From Desulfuromonadaceae bacterium (GTDB lineage Bacteria; Desulfobacterota; Desulfuromonadia; Desulfuromonadales; Geopsychrobacteraceae), in the NCBI GenBank assembly GCA_013138655.1, contig WTCI01000163.1:1-16997 (forward strand): 16,997 nt of DNA, read 5' to 3'. The notes under the pieces were generated by a model, which ran no database searches, had not been told where the DNA came from, and saw nothing but the letters and a program-made list of their open reading frames with translations. A program made the position numbers and the translations under genes. Each line of letters begins with the position of its first letter. Position 1 is the stretch's first letter. Below are positions 3 to 8,806 of this stretch, in pieces.

Positions 3-464
3 CGTAAGTACCCCGGCTTTTTGTATCACGTGATGCAACTCAACCTCACCCACAAGGTTCCCACCGGTCTGTGGGGGCGCTTCACCACCGAGAAAAGTGG
101 CGAGCACAAAGGGCAGTTATCCCTGAAAAAAGGCGGTCTGATCTATATTGTCGACTGTCTACGGATGTTTGCTCTGGAACATGAGATCCGCGCCCTGACT
201 ACTCTGGAACGGCTGAAACAGCTGACCGATGACAACGTATTTACCGCAGAAACGGCAGAGCATATCCGGGTCGCCTTTGAAGCACTATCGTTCTTGCGCT
301 TACGCAACGAAATCAGCCTGCTGCAAAACGACCAGCCCGCCGACAGTTACATCGACCCCAATGCCCTGAGCAAAACCGAGCAAGAGCTGCTGCGCAGTTC
401 CTTCCACGTCGTGAGCAAGCTGCAGGACACCACCCGCAGCCACTTCGGCAAGGGGCTGACTTAA
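3..464 (+). CDS. DUF294 / CBS-type putative nucleotidyltransferase, C-terminal part (5' end outside window)
   Basis: This is the 3' end of a gene that enters from the left edge; the frame is open from position 3, so the TTG at 21 is not a convincing start. The visible 153 residues resemble the C-terminal DUF294_C helical domain. They include a KKGG-L-IVD segment, then the block MFALEHEIRALTTLERL, and a tail with FHVVSKLQDTTRSHFG. In complete family members this domain follows a cyclic-nucleotide-binding domain, two CBS domains and a GlnD-like nucleotidyltransferase domain. Those parts lie outside the window, so full-length architecture is assumed. The family is thought to act in signalling by nucleotide transfer or nucleotide sensing, and it is often found near sodium:solute symporters and DnaQ-like exonucleases. 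Both occur in this window. The next gene begins 37 nt downstream on the same strand. Confidence 0.8.
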   Translation, partial: RKYPGFLYHVMQLNLTHKVPTGLWGRFTTEKSGEHKGQLSLKKGGLIYIVDCLRMFALEHEIRALTTLERLKQLTDDNVFTAETAEHIRVAFEALSFLRLRNEISLLQNDQPADSYIDPNALSKTEQELLRSSFHVVSKLQDTTRSHFGKGLT

Positions 465-1284: not shown

Positions 1285-2718
1285 TTACGTGAGGCGGGCG
1301 TTTTGCCGTTCCAACCAGTGGCGCAAGCGTCGCAGATGGCACTGCACCAACACCTTGTCCAGTGACGAATCTGCCAGCATCCCCTGTTCGACCTTGGCCA
1401 AAAAGCTCTCAATCTCCTGCCCGGCGAGTGCCTGTGGCTGATGGGCCCAGTACAGTAAATCCCCCAGCGGCTCCAGACAATACCGACCAAGATCACTCAC
1501 CCGGTTGAACCCCGCCAACGCCAGTATCAGACTCAGCCAGTCATCGTAGCCACGCGTAGCACTCAGCCGTAAAAACGCATACTCGGTCACCAGGTGGTGG
1601 ATGTGGTCGAACAGTGACTCATGACGGCGTTGCTGCACCATCTTGATCAGTTCATTGCGGGCAAAACGTCGCTCACACAGGCGGCCATTATCATCGACCG
1701 TCAGATCACCGCCTAACAGCAACAAGCAGAGATAATCGGACAGCTGCGGCACCAGGAGCGCGCCCTGATCAACACATTCGACATTAAGATGCAGACTGTG
1801 GGGAGCCACGCACCGGTTAAAGGCGACAACCCTTTGAATGTAACGCGCCAGAAAGCCGGGGTCGCGGGTCAGAGGCAGGGAGTAACGTCGTGGATAGTCA
1901 ATCCGCACCAGATTATACTCGAAAAAACCGCCAATCCAGGGTACCGACAGATAACGGCGCAGGCGCACATGGTGATCCAGATAGCCACCGAGCCGCCAGC
2001 TGACATCTTCGAGAAAAAACTGGTGAAAATAGATAAAATTACGGAAGGGCTGATCCTGACCATGACGGCCGAATGAGTGTTCAAAAGAGGCCCGGTGGCC
2101 GAGATTGCTGAATTCCAGTTCCGCCCCCAGCGGCACCTGCCCGCCGATACGATAACGCAAACTGCGGGTAACAGCGGCCTGCAACGGCAACGTATCGCAC
2201 AGCTGACGGGTGATGTAAAAAGCCCGCAGACAGTACAGATAGAGATGACGACTGTCTTCCGCCAACACCTGAGCGATCTGTTTCTCGATCAGTGCTTCCA
2301 GCTCAGGTTCATGCTCGGCAAACCACTCCAGCGCCGCCAGTATCAGGGGAGCATCCGGATAGCAGCCGGGTTCGGTGGGCAACACCCGGGCATGGCGTTT
2401 GCGGATCATCTGCACCACAAACCCGAGTACGTAATGCCGAAAAATCAATTTGAGATAAGCGGGCAACAGCTGTTTTTTCCGCCAGATCCGGCGACGGATG
2501 CAAAACCTCCGATCCTGGCGTTGCGCTGCCAGGTACAGATTATTCTTAAAGGCAGATTGCGGGTGATGAAAACGGTATCGGTTGAAAAACTGGAAGCGGC
2601 GGCGATAGGTCACACCGATAAACTCGCGCAGCACCATCCCCCGCTCCACTGCCGACAGGCGGCCATAAAAGGTGCCGTAAAAGGGATGTTGAGCATGCTC
2701 CGGGAAAAAAAACGGCAT
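1285..2718 (-). CDS. Hypothetical protein, possible glutamine-synthetase-fold ligase (amidoligase-like)
   Basis: I do not recognise this 477-residue protein with certainty. The frame is open further upstream, but I place the start at the ATG at 2718: it has GGGAGAG five bases before it, whereas the earlier ATG at 2799 would overlap the preceding gene. The N-terminal 190 residues are basic and helical. The middle contains GAELEF (residues 198-203), FFEYNLVRIDYPR (265-277) and SLHLNVE (308-314). The G-x-E-x-E strand followed by an H-x-N/H-x strand recalls the metal- and ATP-binding strands of glutamine-synthetase-fold carboxylate-amine ligases (GCS2, COOH-NH2 ligase families). This is a motif resemblance, not a proven homology. 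The C-terminus is helical. It is the last gene of a - strand cluster, 37 nt after the acyl-CoA-synthetase-like gene, and faces a GGCT-like gene. Confidence 0.5.
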   Translation of the reverse strand: MPFFFPEHAQHPFYGTFYGRLSAVERGMVLREFIGVTYRRRFQFFNRYRFHHPQSAFKNNLYLAAQRQDRRFCIRRRIWRKKQLLPAYLKLIFRHYVLGFVVQMIRKRHARVLPTEPGCYPDAPLILAALEWFAEHEPELEALIEKQIAQVLAEDSRHLYLYCLRAFYITRQLCDTLPLQAAVTRSLRYRIGGQVPLGAELEFSNLGHRASFEHSFGRHGQDQPFRNFIYFHQFFLEDVSWRLGGYLDHHVRLRRYLSVPWIGGFFEYNLVRIDYPRRYSLPLTRDPGFLARYIQRVVAFNRCVAPHSLHLNVECVDQGALLVPQLSDYLCLLLLGGDLTVDDNGRLCERRFARNELIKMVQQRRHESLFDHIHHLVTEYAFLRLSATRGYDDWLSLILALAGFNRVSDLGRYCLEPLGDLLYWAHQPQALAGQEIESFLAKVEQGMLADSSLDKVLVQCHLRRLRHWLERQNARLT

Positions 2719-2755
2719 AGGGCTCTCCCATAATCTACATTGCGCTACGCTTCCG

Positions 2756-4621
2756 TCAGATCCCCTCCATCTGCAGTGCAATCTCCTTGAGCAGGTCACG
2801 GTTGATCCGGTTATCCGGGGTTTTGGGTAAATATTTGGTGAAACGGATTTTGTCGGGCAGATTCAATTCGCCAATCTCTTCGATGATATGTTCGTGGATC
2901 TCTCGCAACGTCTTTTCACGATAGCTCTCGTCACGAAAGTCGTACAAAACGCAGTAGGTGACCAGCATATAACCCTGAACCGGATGGTCAATGACAATCG
3001 CCGCACACTCGCGCACCCGCTTCATGGTCATCACCGTCTCCTCAATCTCGTCGAGGCTGCGCCGCCCGGCACCGGTACTGAGAATGTCATCGAGTCGACC
3101 GGTCAGATTGAGGTTTCCCTGTTCATCGTAATAGGCGCCATCTCCGGTACAAAAATAGCTGCGCTCAGGAAACTTCTTCCAGAAGGTCTGCTGATAACCG
3201 ACATCATCCTTGTATAGATCCTGCAACATTGACGGCAGCGGCGAGGCCAGAACCAGCCGTCCCGGCTCCACGAACCCATCCAGAGCCTTGCCCTGATTGT
3301 CAACGACACGTGCATCCACCCCCGGCAGCGGACACATCATGGTGTCATCTTCAAACCCCAGCACCCCAGGCACACCGGCGATCAGACAGCCGCCGGTTTC
3401 AGTCTGCCCCCAGATCTGCAGAATCGGCAAGTTACGTTTGTTGGTCAGCTCATACTGGATCCAGTCGTAAAGATCCTCGTTGATCTTCTCACCGCCACAG
3501 CCGATCAGCCGCAACGAATTGCCGGCACGATTCAGGTAACGCTTGGTACTTTTGGCACGCATGACGCTACGCAGAAGAGAGGGATTGGTATACAACACCG
3601 TCACATGAAATTTATCGAGATAATCGAAAAAGCACTGGGTGTTTTCGTAGGAGATACTGCCCTCGTAGAGAAACAGCGTCGCCCCCAACGCCAGAGGGCC
3701 GTAAACGGTATAGGTGTGACCGTTAATCCAGGCCAGATCGGAGGTATTCCAAAAGATATCCACCTCATCAAGATCGAACAACACCTCGGTGGTAAACTGA
3801 GCCCACATCAAATAACCCGCCAGGCTATGCAACACACCGCGCGGTGTTTTTGATTTGGTGGAGGTATAGATCATAAACAGCGGCTCGTCGGCAGAAAGGA
3901 CCAGATCGACGGTTGCTTCCCGGGAATATTGCGGGTCCGTAATCAGATCGTTGTACCAGATATCACGCTGCGGGCGCATCTGCACCTGCTGTCCGGTGTG
4001 TTCGACAACAACACAGTGACGGATGTCATAATCGATCCGTTCCAGTGCTTCATTGACCACCCCTTTAAGAGACCGCGTACGTAAGTGGGTTCCGTCACTG
4101 GTGATGATATATTTCGCCCGGCAATGCTGCAGACGCTGAGCTAGAGCCTCGGCAGAATAGGCCATGTGGTAGGCAACGTGAATCGCGCCGATACTGGCGC
4201 AGGCGAGCATGGAGATAACGGTTTCCGGAAGATCCGGCATAAACAGCAACACCCGATCCCCTTTTTTCACCCCCAGATGCACCAGCCCGTTGATCAGGCT
4301 TTTGACCTCATACGCCAAAGACTGATAGGTATAGATGCGCTCCTCAAAGTTGACACCACGCCAGATCAATGCCGCTTTGTTGCGACGGACAGTCTCCAGA
4401 TGCTTACCGAGAATATTGTGATAAACATCAAGTTTGCCACCGACAAACCAGCGATAGTGGGGAGGAGCCATGTCATCAAGCACCCTGCGAAACGGTTCCT
4501 CCCAAAGGAGATACTTACGTGCCAGCGTGTCAAACAGCGTCCCGGACGGAATTTTTTTGTATTCTTCGTATTGATCGGCCGATATCTTTTGCCGTTGATA
4601 ACTGAGTTTGGGATGAACCAT
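2756..4621 (-). CDS. Acetyl-CoA synthetase-like AMP-forming acyl-CoA synthetase with altered active-site motifs
   Basis: A 621-residue protein of the ANL adenylating superfamily, close in layout to acetyl-CoA synthetase. It has an ACS_N-type N-terminus (RWFVGGKLDVYHN around 57-69, AALIW at 83-87), a large adenylation domain and a small C-terminal lid. QTETGG (406-411), TGDG (492-495), GRLDD (508-512, hinge Asp) and Arg520 are retained. Three sites differ from active acetyl-CoA synthetases. The P-loop at 253-263 reads TSTKSKTPRGV instead of TSGSTGKPKGV. The acetate-pocket Trp before QTETGG is Gly405. The catalytic and acetylatable Lys of the PKTxSGK motif is Arg605. The reading frame is otherwise intact. 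The ATG overlaps the exonuclease stop by one base (TAATG), with AAGGA nine bases upstream, implying translational coupling. It may be a diverged acyl-CoA ligase with a wider pocket, or a ligand-binding pseudoenzyme. Confidence 0.85.
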   Translation of the reverse strand: MVHPKLSYQRQKISADQYEEYKKIPSGTLFDTLARKYLLWEEPFRRVLDDMAPPHYRWFVGGKLDVYHNILGKHLETVRRNKAALIWRGVNFEERIYTYQSLAYEVKSLINGLVHLGVKKGDRVLLFMPDLPETVISMLACASIGAIHVAYHMAYSAEALAQRLQHCRAKYIITSDGTHLRTRSLKGVVNEALERIDYDIRHCVVVEHTGQQVQMRPQRDIWYNDLITDPQYSREATVDLVLSADEPLFMIYTSTKSKTPRGVLHSLAGYLMWAQFTTEVLFDLDEVDIFWNTSDLAWINGHTYTVYGPLALGATLFLYEGSISYENTQCFFDYLDKFHVTVLYTNPSLLRSVMRAKSTKRYLNRAGNSLRLIGCGGEKINEDLYDWIQYELTNKRNLPILQIWGQTETGGCLIAGVPGVLGFEDDTMMCPLPGVDARVVDNQGKALDGFVEPGRLVLASPLPSMLQDLYKDDVGYQQTFWKKFPERSYFCTGDGAYYDEQGNLNLTGRLDDILSTGAGRRSLDEIEETVMTMKRVRECAAIVIDHPVQGYMLVTYCVLYDFRDESYREKTLREIHEHIIEEIGELNLPDKIRFTKYLPKTPDNRINRDLLKEIALQMEGI

Positions 4622-5322
4622 TACATATTATCCTTCCGTGACATGTCCTGCTGAGCACGAAACAGATCATTCAGGGTCTGGTACGATGACAGTTCGTGAA
4701 GTATACGCAAAAAGACCTTGGCCGTGGCAATGGAATCCCCAAGGGCGCGATGGCGCTGGTCGCAGTCGACACAATAAACATCAAGCATATCATCGAGCTG
4801 AGTGCTGGTATTATTTTCCATCACCAACTTGTGCAACAGCATGGTATCGAGCCAGGGGGCACCCTCCAGATTGCAGCCGAAATATTCCCGCAGATGACGA
4901 TCGAGCATCTTGATATCGAAATTGATGTGGTGTCCGGTGATCATACTGTCCCCGATAAAGCTCAGAAATTCGGGTAACACTTCACCAATCCCCGGTTTAT
5001 CGACCAGCATGTCGTCGGTGATGCCATGCCATTGAATTGATTCGGGAGGGATGGGGAAGGGGGGCTTGATATAGCTTTCAAAAATCTTCGTGATACGACC
5101 GCTTTTGATTTTCACTGCTGCGGCATTAATGATGACGTCTTTCGTCAGATCAAGACCGGTCGTTTCCAGATCGATAATACAGAACGTGGCTTCACGTAAA
5201 TCCAGCTTGAGGGCAGACCGGGAACGGATCTGCCCACAAAGTTTCTCGACATAATCACCCAGCGGATCAACATTCCATTCCTTTTTAAGCGGCGCAACGT
5301 TTTTCAGTAATGACTTCCACAT
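4621..5322 (-). CDS. DEDDh 3'-5' exonuclease, DnaQ/DNA polymerase III epsilon-like
   Basis: A 233-residue exonuclease of the RNase T/DnaQ family. All five DEDDh residues are visible: Asp51 and Glu53 in IDLETTGLD (Exo I), Asp136 in GHHINFD (Exo II), and His191 and Asp196 in HRALGD (Exo III). This predicts an active two-metal enzyme removing 3' nucleotides from DNA or RNA. The approximately 45-residue N-terminal extension and lack of a polymerase-binding tail point to a stand-alone enzyme rather than the replicative proofreading subunit. It is the first gene of the - strand cluster and overlaps the acetyl-CoA-synthetase-like gene by one base. Such DnaQ-like exonucleases commonly accompany DUF294 proteins and sodium:solute symporters; their role there is unknown. 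The ATG at 5322 has only a weak ribosome-binding site. Confidence 0.88.
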   Translation of the reverse strand: MWKSLLKNVAPLKKEWNVDPLGDYVEKLCGQIRSRSALKLDLREATFCIIDLETTGLDLTKDVIINAAAVKIKSGRITKIFESYIKPPFPIPPESIQWHGITDDMLVDKPGIGEVLPEFLSFIGDSMITGHHINFDIKMLDRHLREYFGCNLEGAPWLDTMLLHKLVMENNTSTQLDDMLDVYCVDCDQRHRALGDSIATAKVFLRILHELSSYQTLNDLFRAQQDMSRKDNM

Positions 5323-6651: not shown

Positions 6652-8256
6652 TTACTCGTCGTTGTGAACCCTATAGAGCAATTCCTTGATTTCCTGAGAA
6701 GGCTCGGTTGTCATCAATGACACAATAATCATGGTCGCGATAACCGCCGGAACACCGACAACTGCGCTCGAAGTAAACGGGATATAGTAGGCCAGAATAG
6801 AGGTCTTGGGCAACAGCATGGAACCAAAGGTTACACCCAAGCCAACCACCATACCGGCGATGGCCGCTTCCTTGGTGGTACGACTCCACCACAGACCCAG
6901 CAGGAACAGCGGGAAGAAGGTGTTTGCACCCATGGCAAACGCCACTGCGGTAATCTGTGCAATCAGCGCCGGCGGATTCAGGGCGACGATAATGATGGAA
7001 ACGCCGAGAATAACGGTACCCACGCGGGCAATCAGCATCTTGCTCTCTTCACTGGCATTCGGTTTAAATACACGGAAGTAGATATCGTGTGCGAAGGCTG
7101 AGGAACCGGCCATCAACAAACCACCGACGGTCGAGAATGCTGCCGACACACCACCAGCCGCCAGGAAACCGGCAAACCCCTCGGGCAGACCGGCGAGCTC
7201 AGCCGCGTTAACAACGATAGCATCAGGCGTGATTATACCAGAGGTACCGAGCAGGTTGGAGAACTTGGCAAACGCGGAATAGGCCGGAGCCGTCCAGTAA
7301 ACCAAAGCGATGCAGAACAGACCCCAGACCACCTGCCAGCGTGCATCAGTGACGCGGGGAACCACATAGAAACGACCGATAACATGGGGCAGACCGGCAG
7401 TACCAAGCATCAGCGTCATGCACAGGGCAAACCAGTGATACATGGTGTATTTAGCAAACGGAAGGTAGTAGCTGGGATCTGAAATAGCCGCCGTAATACC
7501 GTTGCCACCATGACCGATGTCCCAAATTGCTGCACCATAACCGATCTGGGGAACTGCCGAGAAATAGCCCAGTTTGTTAGCGATGAAAAACAGGGGCAGG
7601 AAGAAAGTGATGACGATAACCACGTACTGGACCTGCATGTTCTTGGTGGCACCAAGCATCCCGGAAATAAGAACGTAAGTCAGAACAACACCGGTACCGA
7701 CAATAACCGAAGTCTGGTAGCTAATGCCGAAGATCCAGTTGAACATCATACCAATGCCTTTGTACTGACCGACAGCATAGACAAAGGAGATGAGAATAAC
7801 GATCAGTGCCGACATAAAACGGGCAGTGGTGGAATAGTAGCGGTCACCGACAAAATCCGGTGCGGTAAACTTACCGTAGCGACGTACCTGACCGGCCATC
7901 AGCACCAGCAACAGCACGTAACCACCCGTCCAGCCCAGAACGTAAGCGATGGCGAAGTAGCCTTTGAGATAGATCAGGCCCGCCATACCGAGGTAAGACG
8001 CTGCCGACATCCAGTTGGACGCAATCGCCATACCGCCACCGATCTGGCCGACGCCACGACCGGCCGCCCAGTAATCTTCGGTAGTCTGCGCCTTGGAAAA
8101 GACACCGACCAGGATGAACAGAACCAGCAGCGCGGTCATCATGATGGCGGGAATAATTTTAATCTCACCTTCCGGGTTGAGGTCGGTAACAGCAAAAGCG
8201 TTGCTGGCTATCAGCATAAAGAACAGGGTCAAGCCCCAATGCATCATTTTTTTCAT
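6652..8256 (-). CDS. Sodium:solute symporter family protein, acetate-permease (ActP)-like large subunit
   Basis: A 534-residue integral membrane protein of the SSS family. It has a cleavable-looking N-terminus (residues 1-22, ending SNAFA) and then about 13 hydrophobic segments. Family landmarks are TTEDYWAAGRG (58-68), SNWMSAASYLGMAG (80-93), GTAGLPHVIGRF (285-296) and SAAFSTVGGLLMAG (371-384). Ser375-Thr376 in the last are at the expected second sodium site. The pattern is closest to acetate and short monocarboxylate carriers such as ActP. Import of acetate driven by a sodium or cation gradient is the likely role, but the substrate is inferred. GGGAGAA precedes the ATG by eight bases. It is the third gene of a - strand operon, 18 bases after the small subunit gene, and is followed by a strong terminator. 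Confidence 0.9.
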   Translation of the reverse strand: MKKMMHWGLTLFFMLIASNAFAVTDLNPEGEIKIIPAIMMTALLVLFILVGVFSKAQTTEDYWAAGRGVGQIGGGMAIASNWMSAASYLGMAGLIYLKGYFAIAYVLGWTGGYVLLLVLMAGQVRRYGKFTAPDFVGDRYYSTTARFMSALIVILISFVYAVGQYKGIGMMFNWIFGISYQTSVIVGTGVVLTYVLISGMLGATKNMQVQYVVIVITFFLPLFFIANKLGYFSAVPQIGYGAAIWDIGHGGNGITAAISDPSYYLPFAKYTMYHWFALCMTLMLGTAGLPHVIGRFYVVPRVTDARWQVVWGLFCIALVYWTAPAYSAFAKFSNLLGTSGIITPDAIVVNAAELAGLPEGFAGFLAAGGVSAAFSTVGGLLMAGSSAFAHDIYFRVFKPNASEESKMLIARVGTVILGVSIIIVALNPPALIAQITAVAFAMGANTFFPLFLLGLWWSRTTKEAAIAGMVVGLGVTFGSMLLPKTSILAYYIPFTSSAVVGVPAVIATMIIVSLMTTEPSQEIKELLYRVHNDE

Positions 8257-8274: not shown

Positions 8275-8625
8275 CTATTTTTGACTCTCGTGTTCAGACT
8301 CAAGCTTGTCAATAAACTTGCAGTAGACGTAGCACAGGAAAATAAACAGTGCGATCAGGAACTGCGAGGAATACCAGTAGTGGAAAGGGAAGCCCAAAAA
8401 CTTGGTTTCAGTCAGGAAGCTCTTGCCGGTCACCTGAGTAATCACCTCACCGGTACTCAGTGTCAACTGAACCACCTCATTCGGATCCGCTACCAGCTTC
8501 AGGAGAAGGAGAAAACCGAAAACAGAGACAAACCAAACGATAATGATCTTTTGTTTCATCGCCACGTCTTTTTTCATAAAGTCGCCGACCGGCCTGAAAA
8601 AATTAATATTAATATCTTTATCCAT
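8275..8625 (-). CDS. Symporter small subunit, DUF4212-like
   Basis: A 116-residue protein with two hydrophobic segments (about 28-44 and 86-104) and the hallmark FPFHYWYSSQFLIA before the second segment, followed by YVYCKFIDKLE. This matches the DUF4212 small subunit found directly upstream of one branch of sodium:solute symporters, probably needed for assembly or function of the carrier. The ATG at 8625 was chosen over the one at 8631 because AGGAGG lies seven bases before 8625 but only one base before 8631. The stretch between the membrane segments (about 45-78) is longer than usual for the family and rich in Thr, Val and Glu. Eighteen bases separate its stop from the large-subunit ATG. Confidence 0.82.
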   Translation of the reverse strand: MDKDININFFRPVGDFMKKDVAMKQKIIIVWFVSVFGFLLLLKLVADPNEVVQLTLSTGEVITQVTGKSFLTETKFLGFPFHYWYSSQFLIALFIFLCYVYCKFIDKLESEHESQK

Positions 8626-8806
8626 ACCCATACCTCCTCGGTGTCAATCTTTGGTGTCAAACTCATGAGGGCATCGCCCTCGCAAACCACATAAACTGTA
8701 TGTACCAATAAATTACGCCAAAGCTTGTTTTCTTGCCTGAATCCTCCTTTCGTTCAAGAAGTTCATAATCTGATCGGTGTAAAGCCTTTATACGGCACGG
8801 CGACCG

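What the first reader, a model, noticed from the sequence alone, without database searches (positions are those of the whole stretch)
2756..4621. Acetyl-CoA-synthetase-like protein with rewritten P-loop and lost catalytic Lys
The ORF is full length, yet three functional sites differ from active enzymes. The P-loop is TSTKSKTPRGV (253-263) rather than TSGSTGKPKGV. The catalytic Lys of the PKTxSGK motif is Arg605 (PKTPDNRIN). The Trp that limits the pocket to acetate is Gly405. The rest of the fold, the hinge Asp and QTETGG are kept, and the gene is translationally coupled to a nuclease. Selection appears to preserve something other than normal acetyl-AMP chemistry. Options are an acyl-CoA or acyl-AMP sensor, a partner protein, or a ligase with a wider acyl pocket and unusual mechanism.
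Basis: partly seen in the sequence, partly recalled or inferred. Interest (0 to 1): 0.7.

Follow-up and report, generated by a model that had tools for sequence, protein, structure and literature searches.

The report
Acetyl-CoA synthetase look-alike linked to nuclease
A bacterial protein built like the acetate-activating enzyme acetyl-CoA synthetase has lost the parts that do the chemistry but keeps the part that holds the nucleotide, and in its closer relatives its gene sits directly behind a nuclease gene, which suggests an old enzyme reused as a sensor or partner.

Summary
In detail: the 621-aa ORF has TSTKSKTPRGV for the P-loop, Gly405 for the pocket Trp and Arg605 for the catalytic Lys. 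It is not a decaying copy. Of 73 clade rows none keeps both P-loop glycines, none keeps the Trp, and 2 of 71 have Lys at that site; all 160 ordinary Acs compared keep all three. The clade is one side of a branch (SH-aLRT 100) and dN/dS is 0.02-0.13. The ribose-binding network survives: four residues together in 44 of 44 Desulfuromonadales rows. In 136 genomes of the order, this gene and a DEDDh exonuclease with intact catalytic residues occur in the same 29, always adjacent. None of the 29 has an E. coli-type Acs; 7 have a B. subtilis-type one. Best reading: an Acs-derived, non-adenylating pseudoenzyme that binds an adenosine nucleotide and works with the nuclease, probably in acetate/pyruvate metabolism. 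Ligand, inactivity and contact are inferred. Against it: in Deferribacterota, which share the clade, no linkage to the exonuclease was seen.

The parts
2756..4621 (-). Acs-like pseudoenzyme candidate ('pAcs'), 621 aa
   Evidence: Pfam AMP-binding, AMP-binding_C and ACAS_N above cut-off; TIGR02188 529.9 bits against a cut-off of 724.95
3833..3865 (-). altered P-loop TSTKSKTPRGV (residues 253-263; ordinary Acs TSG[ST]TGKPKG)
   Evidence: read directly
3407..3409 (-). Gly405 in place of the acetate-pocket Trp (E. coli W414)
2807..2809 (-). Arg605 in place of the A10 catalytic Lys (E. coli K609)
3140..3142 (-). Asp494, kept ribose-binding Asp of motif III (E. coli D500)
3095..3097 (-). Arg509, kept (E. 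coli R515)
4621..5322 (-). DEDDh 3'-5' exonuclease, 233 aa, immediate upstream partner; D51, E53, D136, H191, D196 intact
4619..4623 (-). TAATG: exonuclease stop overlaps pAcs start by one base
   Evidence: read directly
1285..2730 (-). uncharacterised protein downstream of pAcs (start uncertain; the longest ORF starts at 2799)
   Evidence: no Pfam or NCBIfam family at E <= 0.001
6652..8256 (-). VC_2705-family sodium/solute symporter, near neighbour
   Evidence: (TIGR03648 506.6 bits, cut-off 320.75)
8275..8631 (-). DUF4212 symporter small subunit
3..464 (+). C-terminal part of a DUF294 nucleotidyltransferase, cut by the contig end; the full-length relative in L066 has cNMP-binding, CBS, DUF294 and DUF294_C domains

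Best explanation
pAcs is an acetyl-CoA-synthetase-derived pseudoenzyme. It keeps the ANL fold and the ribose-recognition network, so it probably still binds an adenosine nucleotide (AMP, an acyl-AMP or ATP). It probably cannot carry out acetate adenylation, because the glycines of the triphosphate loop, the loop Lys and the A10 Lys are gone. In Desulfuromonadales its gene directly follows, and touches, that of a DEDDh exonuclease with intact catalytic residues, and the two act as one unit. Most likely pAcs binds the nuclease and sets its activity or target according to the adenylate/acyl state of the cell; in this window the pair lies near an acetate- or pyruvate-type Na+ symporter and a DUF294 nucleotidyltransferase. 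Shown here: sequence changes, clade, purifying selection, gene pairing, intact nuclease residues. Inferred: co-transcription, lack of adenylation, ligand, physical contact, direction of control.
For: Loss of catalytic residues is fixed in the clade: G266 and G269 both Gly in 0 of 73 rows, K609 in 2 of 71, W414 in 0 of 73; ordinary Acs 160 of 160 for each. The A10 column is free: 2.1 bits against a mean of 0.91 in Desulfuromonadales rows, 3.1 against 1.36 in the other clade rows, 0 in ordinary Acs. The ribose network W413/Q415/D500/R515 is kept together in 44 of 44 Desulfuromonadales rows, and D500/R515/T416/E417 in 72 of 72 clade rows. PMC3438747 (passages seen) gives D500 contacts to the 2'-OH and W413, and Q415 and R515 contacts to the 3'-OH, in Salmonella Acs; PMC11255334 (passages seen) says the A10 Lys is essential for adenylation. 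dN/dS is 0.022-0.134 over 14 pairs. The nuclease is adjacent in 29 of 29 pAcs genomes, and no ortholog-level match was found in the other 107. Its DEDDh residues are kept in the sequences aligned. In P. putida a CBS protein and an RNase_T nuclease form an operon in the acetate regulon, and the nuclease mutant grows poorly on pyruvate (PMC9927547, sections 7 and 8 read).
Against: No biochemistry. In those 28 rows the ribose network is only partly kept (all four residues in 2 of 28; W413 is Tyr in 24, Q415 is Gln in 5). T264 and a basic residue at K272 (K or R in 70 of 73) remain in the loop, so weak phosphate binding or slow chemistry is not excluded. P0011 and P0029 have Lys at the A10 site and P0020 has one P-loop Gly. 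In P. putida the nuclease mutant showed no defect on acetate, and I did not test whether that nuclease is an ortholog. dS above 1 makes many dN/dS values rough.
Confidence: 0.57

Rival explanations
1. pAcs is still an active ligase or transferase with an unusual mechanism and a wider, non-acetate pocket.
For: W414->G/S and V386->G open the acyl pocket, and changed positions such as H152, W273, A356 and G376 are conserved in the clade. D500, R515, T416 and E417 are kept in 72 of 72 rows. Two new lysines in the loop (K256 in 44 of 45, K258 in 41 of 45 Desulfuromonadales rows) could hold phosphates. The thioester half-reaction is little affected by loss of the A10 Lys in related enzymes (PMC11255334 passages). 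Most pAcs genomes (22 of 29) have no other Acs found at the cut-offs used, so a substitute enzyme would be useful.
Against: No fixed residue replaces the A10 Lys; the column holds 12 residue types and is free. The loop lysines are absent in the other clade rows, where position 256 is N, H or D. CoA-side positions F163, G165 and A357 are changed. In the 20 loci fetched, no acyl-CoA-pathway gene lies beside it as constantly as the exonuclease. An acetyl-CoA hydrolase/transferase family match that could serve acetate activation is found in 27 of the 29 genomes.
Confidence: 0.18
2. pAcs is a ligand-free scaffold or stabiliser of the exonuclease, or of another neighbour.
For: Fixed pairing with the nuclease in 29 of 29 genomes; the active site is dismantled.
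Against: In Desulfuromonadales rows the ribose network is invariant (44 of 44) and motif II is nearly as conserved as in ordinary Acs (0.39 against 0.29 bits), which a pure scaffold would not need. The hinge Asp is kept in 72 of 72. The clade also exists where no link to the nuclease was seen.
Confidence: 0.2
3. The gene is decaying and is carried along only by the nuclease operon.
For: Loss of catalytic residues alone could look like decay.
Against: dN/dS 0.022-0.134; no internal stop in the matches of the 29 genomes; changes fixed in 73 rows of an old clade; conserved clade-specific residues.
Confidence: 0.02

Closest known systems
[quoted passage not shown] Salmonella Acs 1PG4/2P2F, E. coli Acs)
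   Same: Full-length ANL fold; best PDB sequence match (2p2b, E 6.6e-111) and best fold match (2p20, TM about 0.82, 33% identity); ribose network and hinge Asp kept.
   Different: P-loop glycines, A10 Lys, acetate-pocket Trp and Val, and CoA-side positions lost; below the AcsA equivalog cut-off (529.9 against 724.95 bits); separate clade.
Acs-AcuA complex of Bacillus subtilis (regulation of Acs by a bound partner; PMC11255334, passages seen)
   Same: An Acs-fold protein whose state is tied to a bound partner.
   Different: There Acs is a real enzyme and the partner an acetyltransferase; here the Acs-like protein itself looks inactive and the linked gene is a nuclease. Resemblance only.
CrbS/CrbR (MxtR/ErdR) acetate-regulon genes of Pseudomonas: CBS-nucleotidyltransferase, RNase_T nuclease, actP/yjcH (PMC9927547 sections 7-8 read; PMC5715377 passages)
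   Same: Same kinds of neighbours: a CBS/nucleotidyltransferase protein, an RNase_T nuclease and an SSS-family symporter.
   Different: No Acs-like pseudoenzyme is mentioned in the parts I read; orthology of the nucleases was not tested; the window's symporter is of the VC_2705 type with DUF4212, not ActP with YjcH.
Pseudoenzymes in general (recalled, no call)
   Same: A catalytic fold kept after loss of catalytic residues, used for binding or regulation.
   Different: I recall no Acs-derived case with a nuclease; searches returned no paper, and the listings of 55 (20 of 41 shown) and 73 (3 of 3) showed none (open-licence papers only).

Membership tests
ANL superfamily (acyl-CoA synthetase fold) | AMP-binding and AMP-binding_C domains | tested here: met
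   PF00501 209.2 bits, PF13193 42.5 bits, both above cut-off; Foldseek hits to Acs
[quoted passage not shown]
   529.9 bits against 724.95
[quoted passage not shown]
   both glycines in 0 of 73 clade rows, 160 of 160 ordinary rows
[quoted passage not shown]
   Arg605 here; K in 2 of 71 clade rows
[quoted passage not shown]
   Gly405; 0 of 73 clade rows
[quoted passage not shown]
   D494 and R509, 72 of 72 rows
[quoted passage not shown]
   needs an assay
Pseudoenzyme | Enzyme fold kept under selection with catalytic residues lost | tested here: met
Pseudoenzyme | No catalytic activity | not testable with these tools
   needs an assay
DEDDh exonuclease (partner) | D, E, D, H, D catalytic residues | tested here: met
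   D51, E53, D136, H191, D196 invariant in the 12 rows of A3 and in the 21 rows; PF00929 113.9 bits
Anti-phage defence system | Match to a defence model beyond a generic exonuclease domain | tested here: inconclusive
   PADLOC at E <= 0.01: pAcs and the downstream protein none; the nuclease matches DEDDh, two PDC-S48 models and, weakly, RTasHel

The most novel reading that the evidence does not exclude
An acetate-activating enzyme was converted into a nucleotide/acyl-adenylate receptor that switches a dedicated exonuclease, so that the acetyl-metabolic state of the cell directly controls RNA (or nucleotide) turnover: a two-gene metabolite-sensing nuclease module of Desulfuromonadales, most of which have no ordinary Acs beside it.
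Probability: 0.3. Interest if true: 0.82.

Novelty: new variant of a known kind. Interest (0 to 1): 0.62.

Why it matters
Several of these proteins are labelled acetyl-CoA synthetase or acetate-CoA ligase by their sources (for example P0016, P0024, P0141), so metabolic models of acetate-using sulfur and metal reducers may credit them with an activity that they probably lack. If the pairing with the nuclease is functional, it would be a compact new link between carbon metabolism and nucleic-acid turnover, and a concrete system for asking what the nuclease near acetate-uptake genes does, a question left open for P. putida (PMC9927547, sections 7-8).

Tried and rejected
Decay was rejected. Regulation of a resident Acs as the general function was rejected for this order: the E. 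coli-type Acs (TIGR02188 over its cut-off) is in 7 of 136 genomes and in 0 of the 29 pAcs genomes. A B. subtilis-type acetate-CoA ligase (PRK04319) is over its cut-off in 18 of 136 and in 5 of the 29 (G005, G012, G033, G086, G100), with two further pAcs genomes matching below the cut-off (G035, G093); the three of these that I read (G005, G012, G033) have intact P-loop, Trp and Lys motifs. So 22 of 29, the window's genome among them, have neither at those thresholds, but in 7 a regulatory link cannot be excluded. Of the 7 genomes with E. coli-type Acs, 6 were read: all 6 carry PKTRSGK and WWQTETG, and my P-loop pattern matched in 4 (G110 not read). A defence role found no support beyond exonuclease-type models. 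A tie to acetyl-CoA hydrolase/transferase was not specific: PF13336 is in 27 of the 29 but in 123 of all 136. The phylum sample (395 genomes, at most 3 candidates scored in each) gave no clade-level match except the own genome, 1023 bits, next 584. The pAcs model (pLDDT 74) is weak exactly at the P-loop and hinge, and no coordinates are returned, so the ATP site was not inspected in 3D. Paper searches (listings only, some capped) showed no description of the pair; one of the listed papers, PMC9927547, was then read in part.

Limits: rows are 90% clusters and only the best 120 of each list were seen; taxon names rest on the few rows that carry one; genome searches score only the first candidates of each genome.

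Full report
What is there. The window is a whole contig (G000:C243) of a 2.45-Mb, 93% complete genome; relatives carrying a name in public records are mostly called Desulfuromonas, Desulfuromusa or Desulfuromonadaceae. The ORF at 2756-4621 (-) encodes 621 aa with AMP-binding, AMP-binding_C and ACAS_N domains. It is nearest to ordinary acetyl-CoA synthetase in the PDB by sequence (2p2b, E 6.6e-111) and by fold (2p20, TM 0.82), but it falls well below the AcsA equivalog cut-off (529.9 against 724.95 bits).

Not one odd copy. A protein search gave relatives, nearly all of the same length, at 54-96% identity (two are partial), then a group at 39-42%, then ordinary Acs. A second search from the distant group added 21 rows and showed a step from 781 to 591 bits where ordinary Acs begins. 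In 73 rows (query, 51, 21) both P-loop glycines are kept by none and the pocket Trp by none; 2 of the 71 rows that reach the A10 site have Lys there. In 160 ordinary Acs rows all keep all three. In a tree of 34 clade and 37 ordinary rows the clade is one side of a branch, SH-aLRT 100 (quick method, no bootstrap; the program warned that the long branch of P0045/P0046 meets that of the ordinary rows).

What was lost and what was kept. Mapped on E. coli Acs (the role given to most positions is recalled), the clade has lost G266, G269 and K270 of the triphosphate loop, V386 and W414 of the acyl pocket, G165 and A357 on the CoA side, and K609. It keeps T264, T416, E417, D500, R515, the hinge D517, P603 and K604. 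Of 162 columns nearly invariant in ordinary Acs, 67 are kept at 90% or more and 32 at 10% or less. PMC3438747 (passages seen) states that in Salmonella Acs D500 holds the ribose 2'-OH and W413, and that the 3'-OH meets Q415 and R515. All four are kept together in 44 of 44 Desulfuromonadales rows, but in only 2 of 28 other clade rows; D500, R515, T416 and E417 are kept in 72 of 72. The A10 position is unconstrained (2.1 bits against a column mean of 0.91; 3.1 against 1.36 in the other clade rows; zero in ordinary Acs), while P599, K600 and position 604 do not vary within either group (which used 43 of the 45 Desulfuromonadales rows, effective number 8.6). The loop is not simply relaxed: Desulfuromonadales rows have Lys at 256 (44 of 45) and at 258 (41 of 45), and the 28 loci read of the 29 genomes all show both (G100 was not caught by the pattern).

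Selection. Nei-Gojobori dN/dS for pAcs is 0.022-0.134 over 14 pairs with finite values (2 further pairs were undefined, and 11 of 20 comparisons with the window gene were not printed because synonymous sites are saturated). For the exonuclease the printed values run from 0.023 to 0.224. No pAcs match in the 29 genomes has an internal stop.

The partner. The exonuclease at 4621-5322 (-) ends in TAATG, one base shared with the pAcs start. Its DEDDh residues D51, E53, D136, H191 and D196 are kept. In 20 fetched loci plus the window the two genes are adjacent in 21 of 21. Across 136 genomes of the order, pAcs-level matches (676-1156 bits; the next match 521) are in 29, nuclease-ortholog matches (373-452 bits; the next match 131) are in 29, and these are the same 29 genomes, each with both genes on one contig and one strand, 2-9 bases apart before the stop codon is counted, and -2 in G091. 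Shared ancestry makes these not independent, but the pair comes and goes as a unit: in the window's genus 3 of 10 genomes have it and the other 7 have neither.

Other acetate-activating enzymes. None of the 29 has an E. coli-type Acs over the cut-off; 7 of the other 107 do. Five of the 29 have a B. subtilis-type acetate-CoA ligase over its cut-off and two more have a weaker match; three of these were read and are intact at all three motifs. The window's own genome has neither but has a member of the acetyl-CoA hydrolase/transferase family, as do 27 of the 29 and 123 of all 136. So pAcs is not a standing companion of an active Acs, and it is not restricted to genomes without one.

Setting. Among Desulfuromonas-type loci the stretches fetched show, in varying number and order, a DUF294 protein (with cNMP-binding and CBS domains in the one scanned), a gamma-glutamyl cyclotransferase-like protein, an unknown protein, a TPR protein and a VC_2705-type symporter with DUF4212; in the 8 Desulfuromusa-type loci these were not found in the stretches fetched, and an exonuclease-domain protein of 717-769 aa precedes the pair. 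In Pseudomonas, a CBS protein and an RNase_T nuclease are tied to the acetate two-component system, their homologs lie next to actP/yjcH in P. aeruginosa PAO1, and the P. putida nuclease mutant is slow on pyruvate but not on acetate (PMC9927547, sections 7 and 8 read; PMC5715377, passages). I did not test whether those nucleases are orthologs.

Evidence against my reading. The clade also occurs in Deferribacterota (named rows: Calditerrivibrio, two Deferribacterales, Deferribacter desulfuricans), and exonucleases at 43-46% identity occur there too (named rows: Deferribacter abyssi, Limisalsivibrio). But no contig length is shared between the 28 non-Desulfuromonadales pAcs rows and the 12 such nuclease rows, whereas many are shared in Desulfuromonadales (for example 266736, 50454, 3458). 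The pairing is therefore shown for Desulfuromonadales only. Nothing here proves inactivity, nucleotide binding or contact.

Conclusion. An Acs-derived, probably non-adenylating pseudoenzyme with a kept nucleoside site, fixed in Desulfuromonadales beside an intact exonuclease. Confidence: that it is a retained pseudoenzyme about 0.8; that it works with the nuclease about 0.7; that it is a ligand-dependent regulator of it about 0.4. Interest 0.62.

Noticed in passing
1285-2730 (-), and relatives in L066-L077: Uncharacterised protein of about 480 aa with no Pfam or NCBIfam match, found beside or near pAcs in 11 of the 12 Desulfuromonas-type loci fetched (not in L075). Its best fold match is Dop, a Pup-related ligase-fold enzyme (E 0.15, prob 0.89, weak; model pLDDT 71), and it has an invariant GAELEFSN stretch; next to a GGACT gene this could be an amidoligase-like pair (recalled association, untested).
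   Followed up: partly
L078:5979-8237 and equivalents in L079-L085: Exonuclease-domain protein of 717-769 aa (the one scanned has a weak PAS match) directly upstream of the nuclease-pAcs pair in 8 of 8 Desulfuromusa-type loci; similar matches with long open frames appear in many other genomes of the order.
   Followed up: partly
L035 (JADFVC010000352.1): A 4130-base contig 98% identical in pAcs is titled Chloroflexi MAG C2.bin.19, while a contig of the same length and match sits in a genome that the genome set places in the window's genus (G005): the public title is probably wrong.
   Followed up: no
L069:7524-8965: In G088, a single-contig genome, the ~480-aa downstream protein reads as two overlapping frames (390 and 90 aa), so it may be broken there.
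   Followed up: no
G091:C85:2672-5042 (L058, L146): The nuclease matches model positions 1-208 and pAcs 39-621 with the two matches touching, as if codons around the junction were missing; deletion or assembly error.
   Followed up: no
clade rows, query positions 151, 152, 273, 356, 376, 565, 577, 585: Residues conserved in the clade but not in ordinary Acs (Y151, H152, W273, A356, G376, E565, E577, E585); some lie where E. coli Acs has its CoA/acyl positions and could define a new ligand or partner surface.
   Followed up: partly
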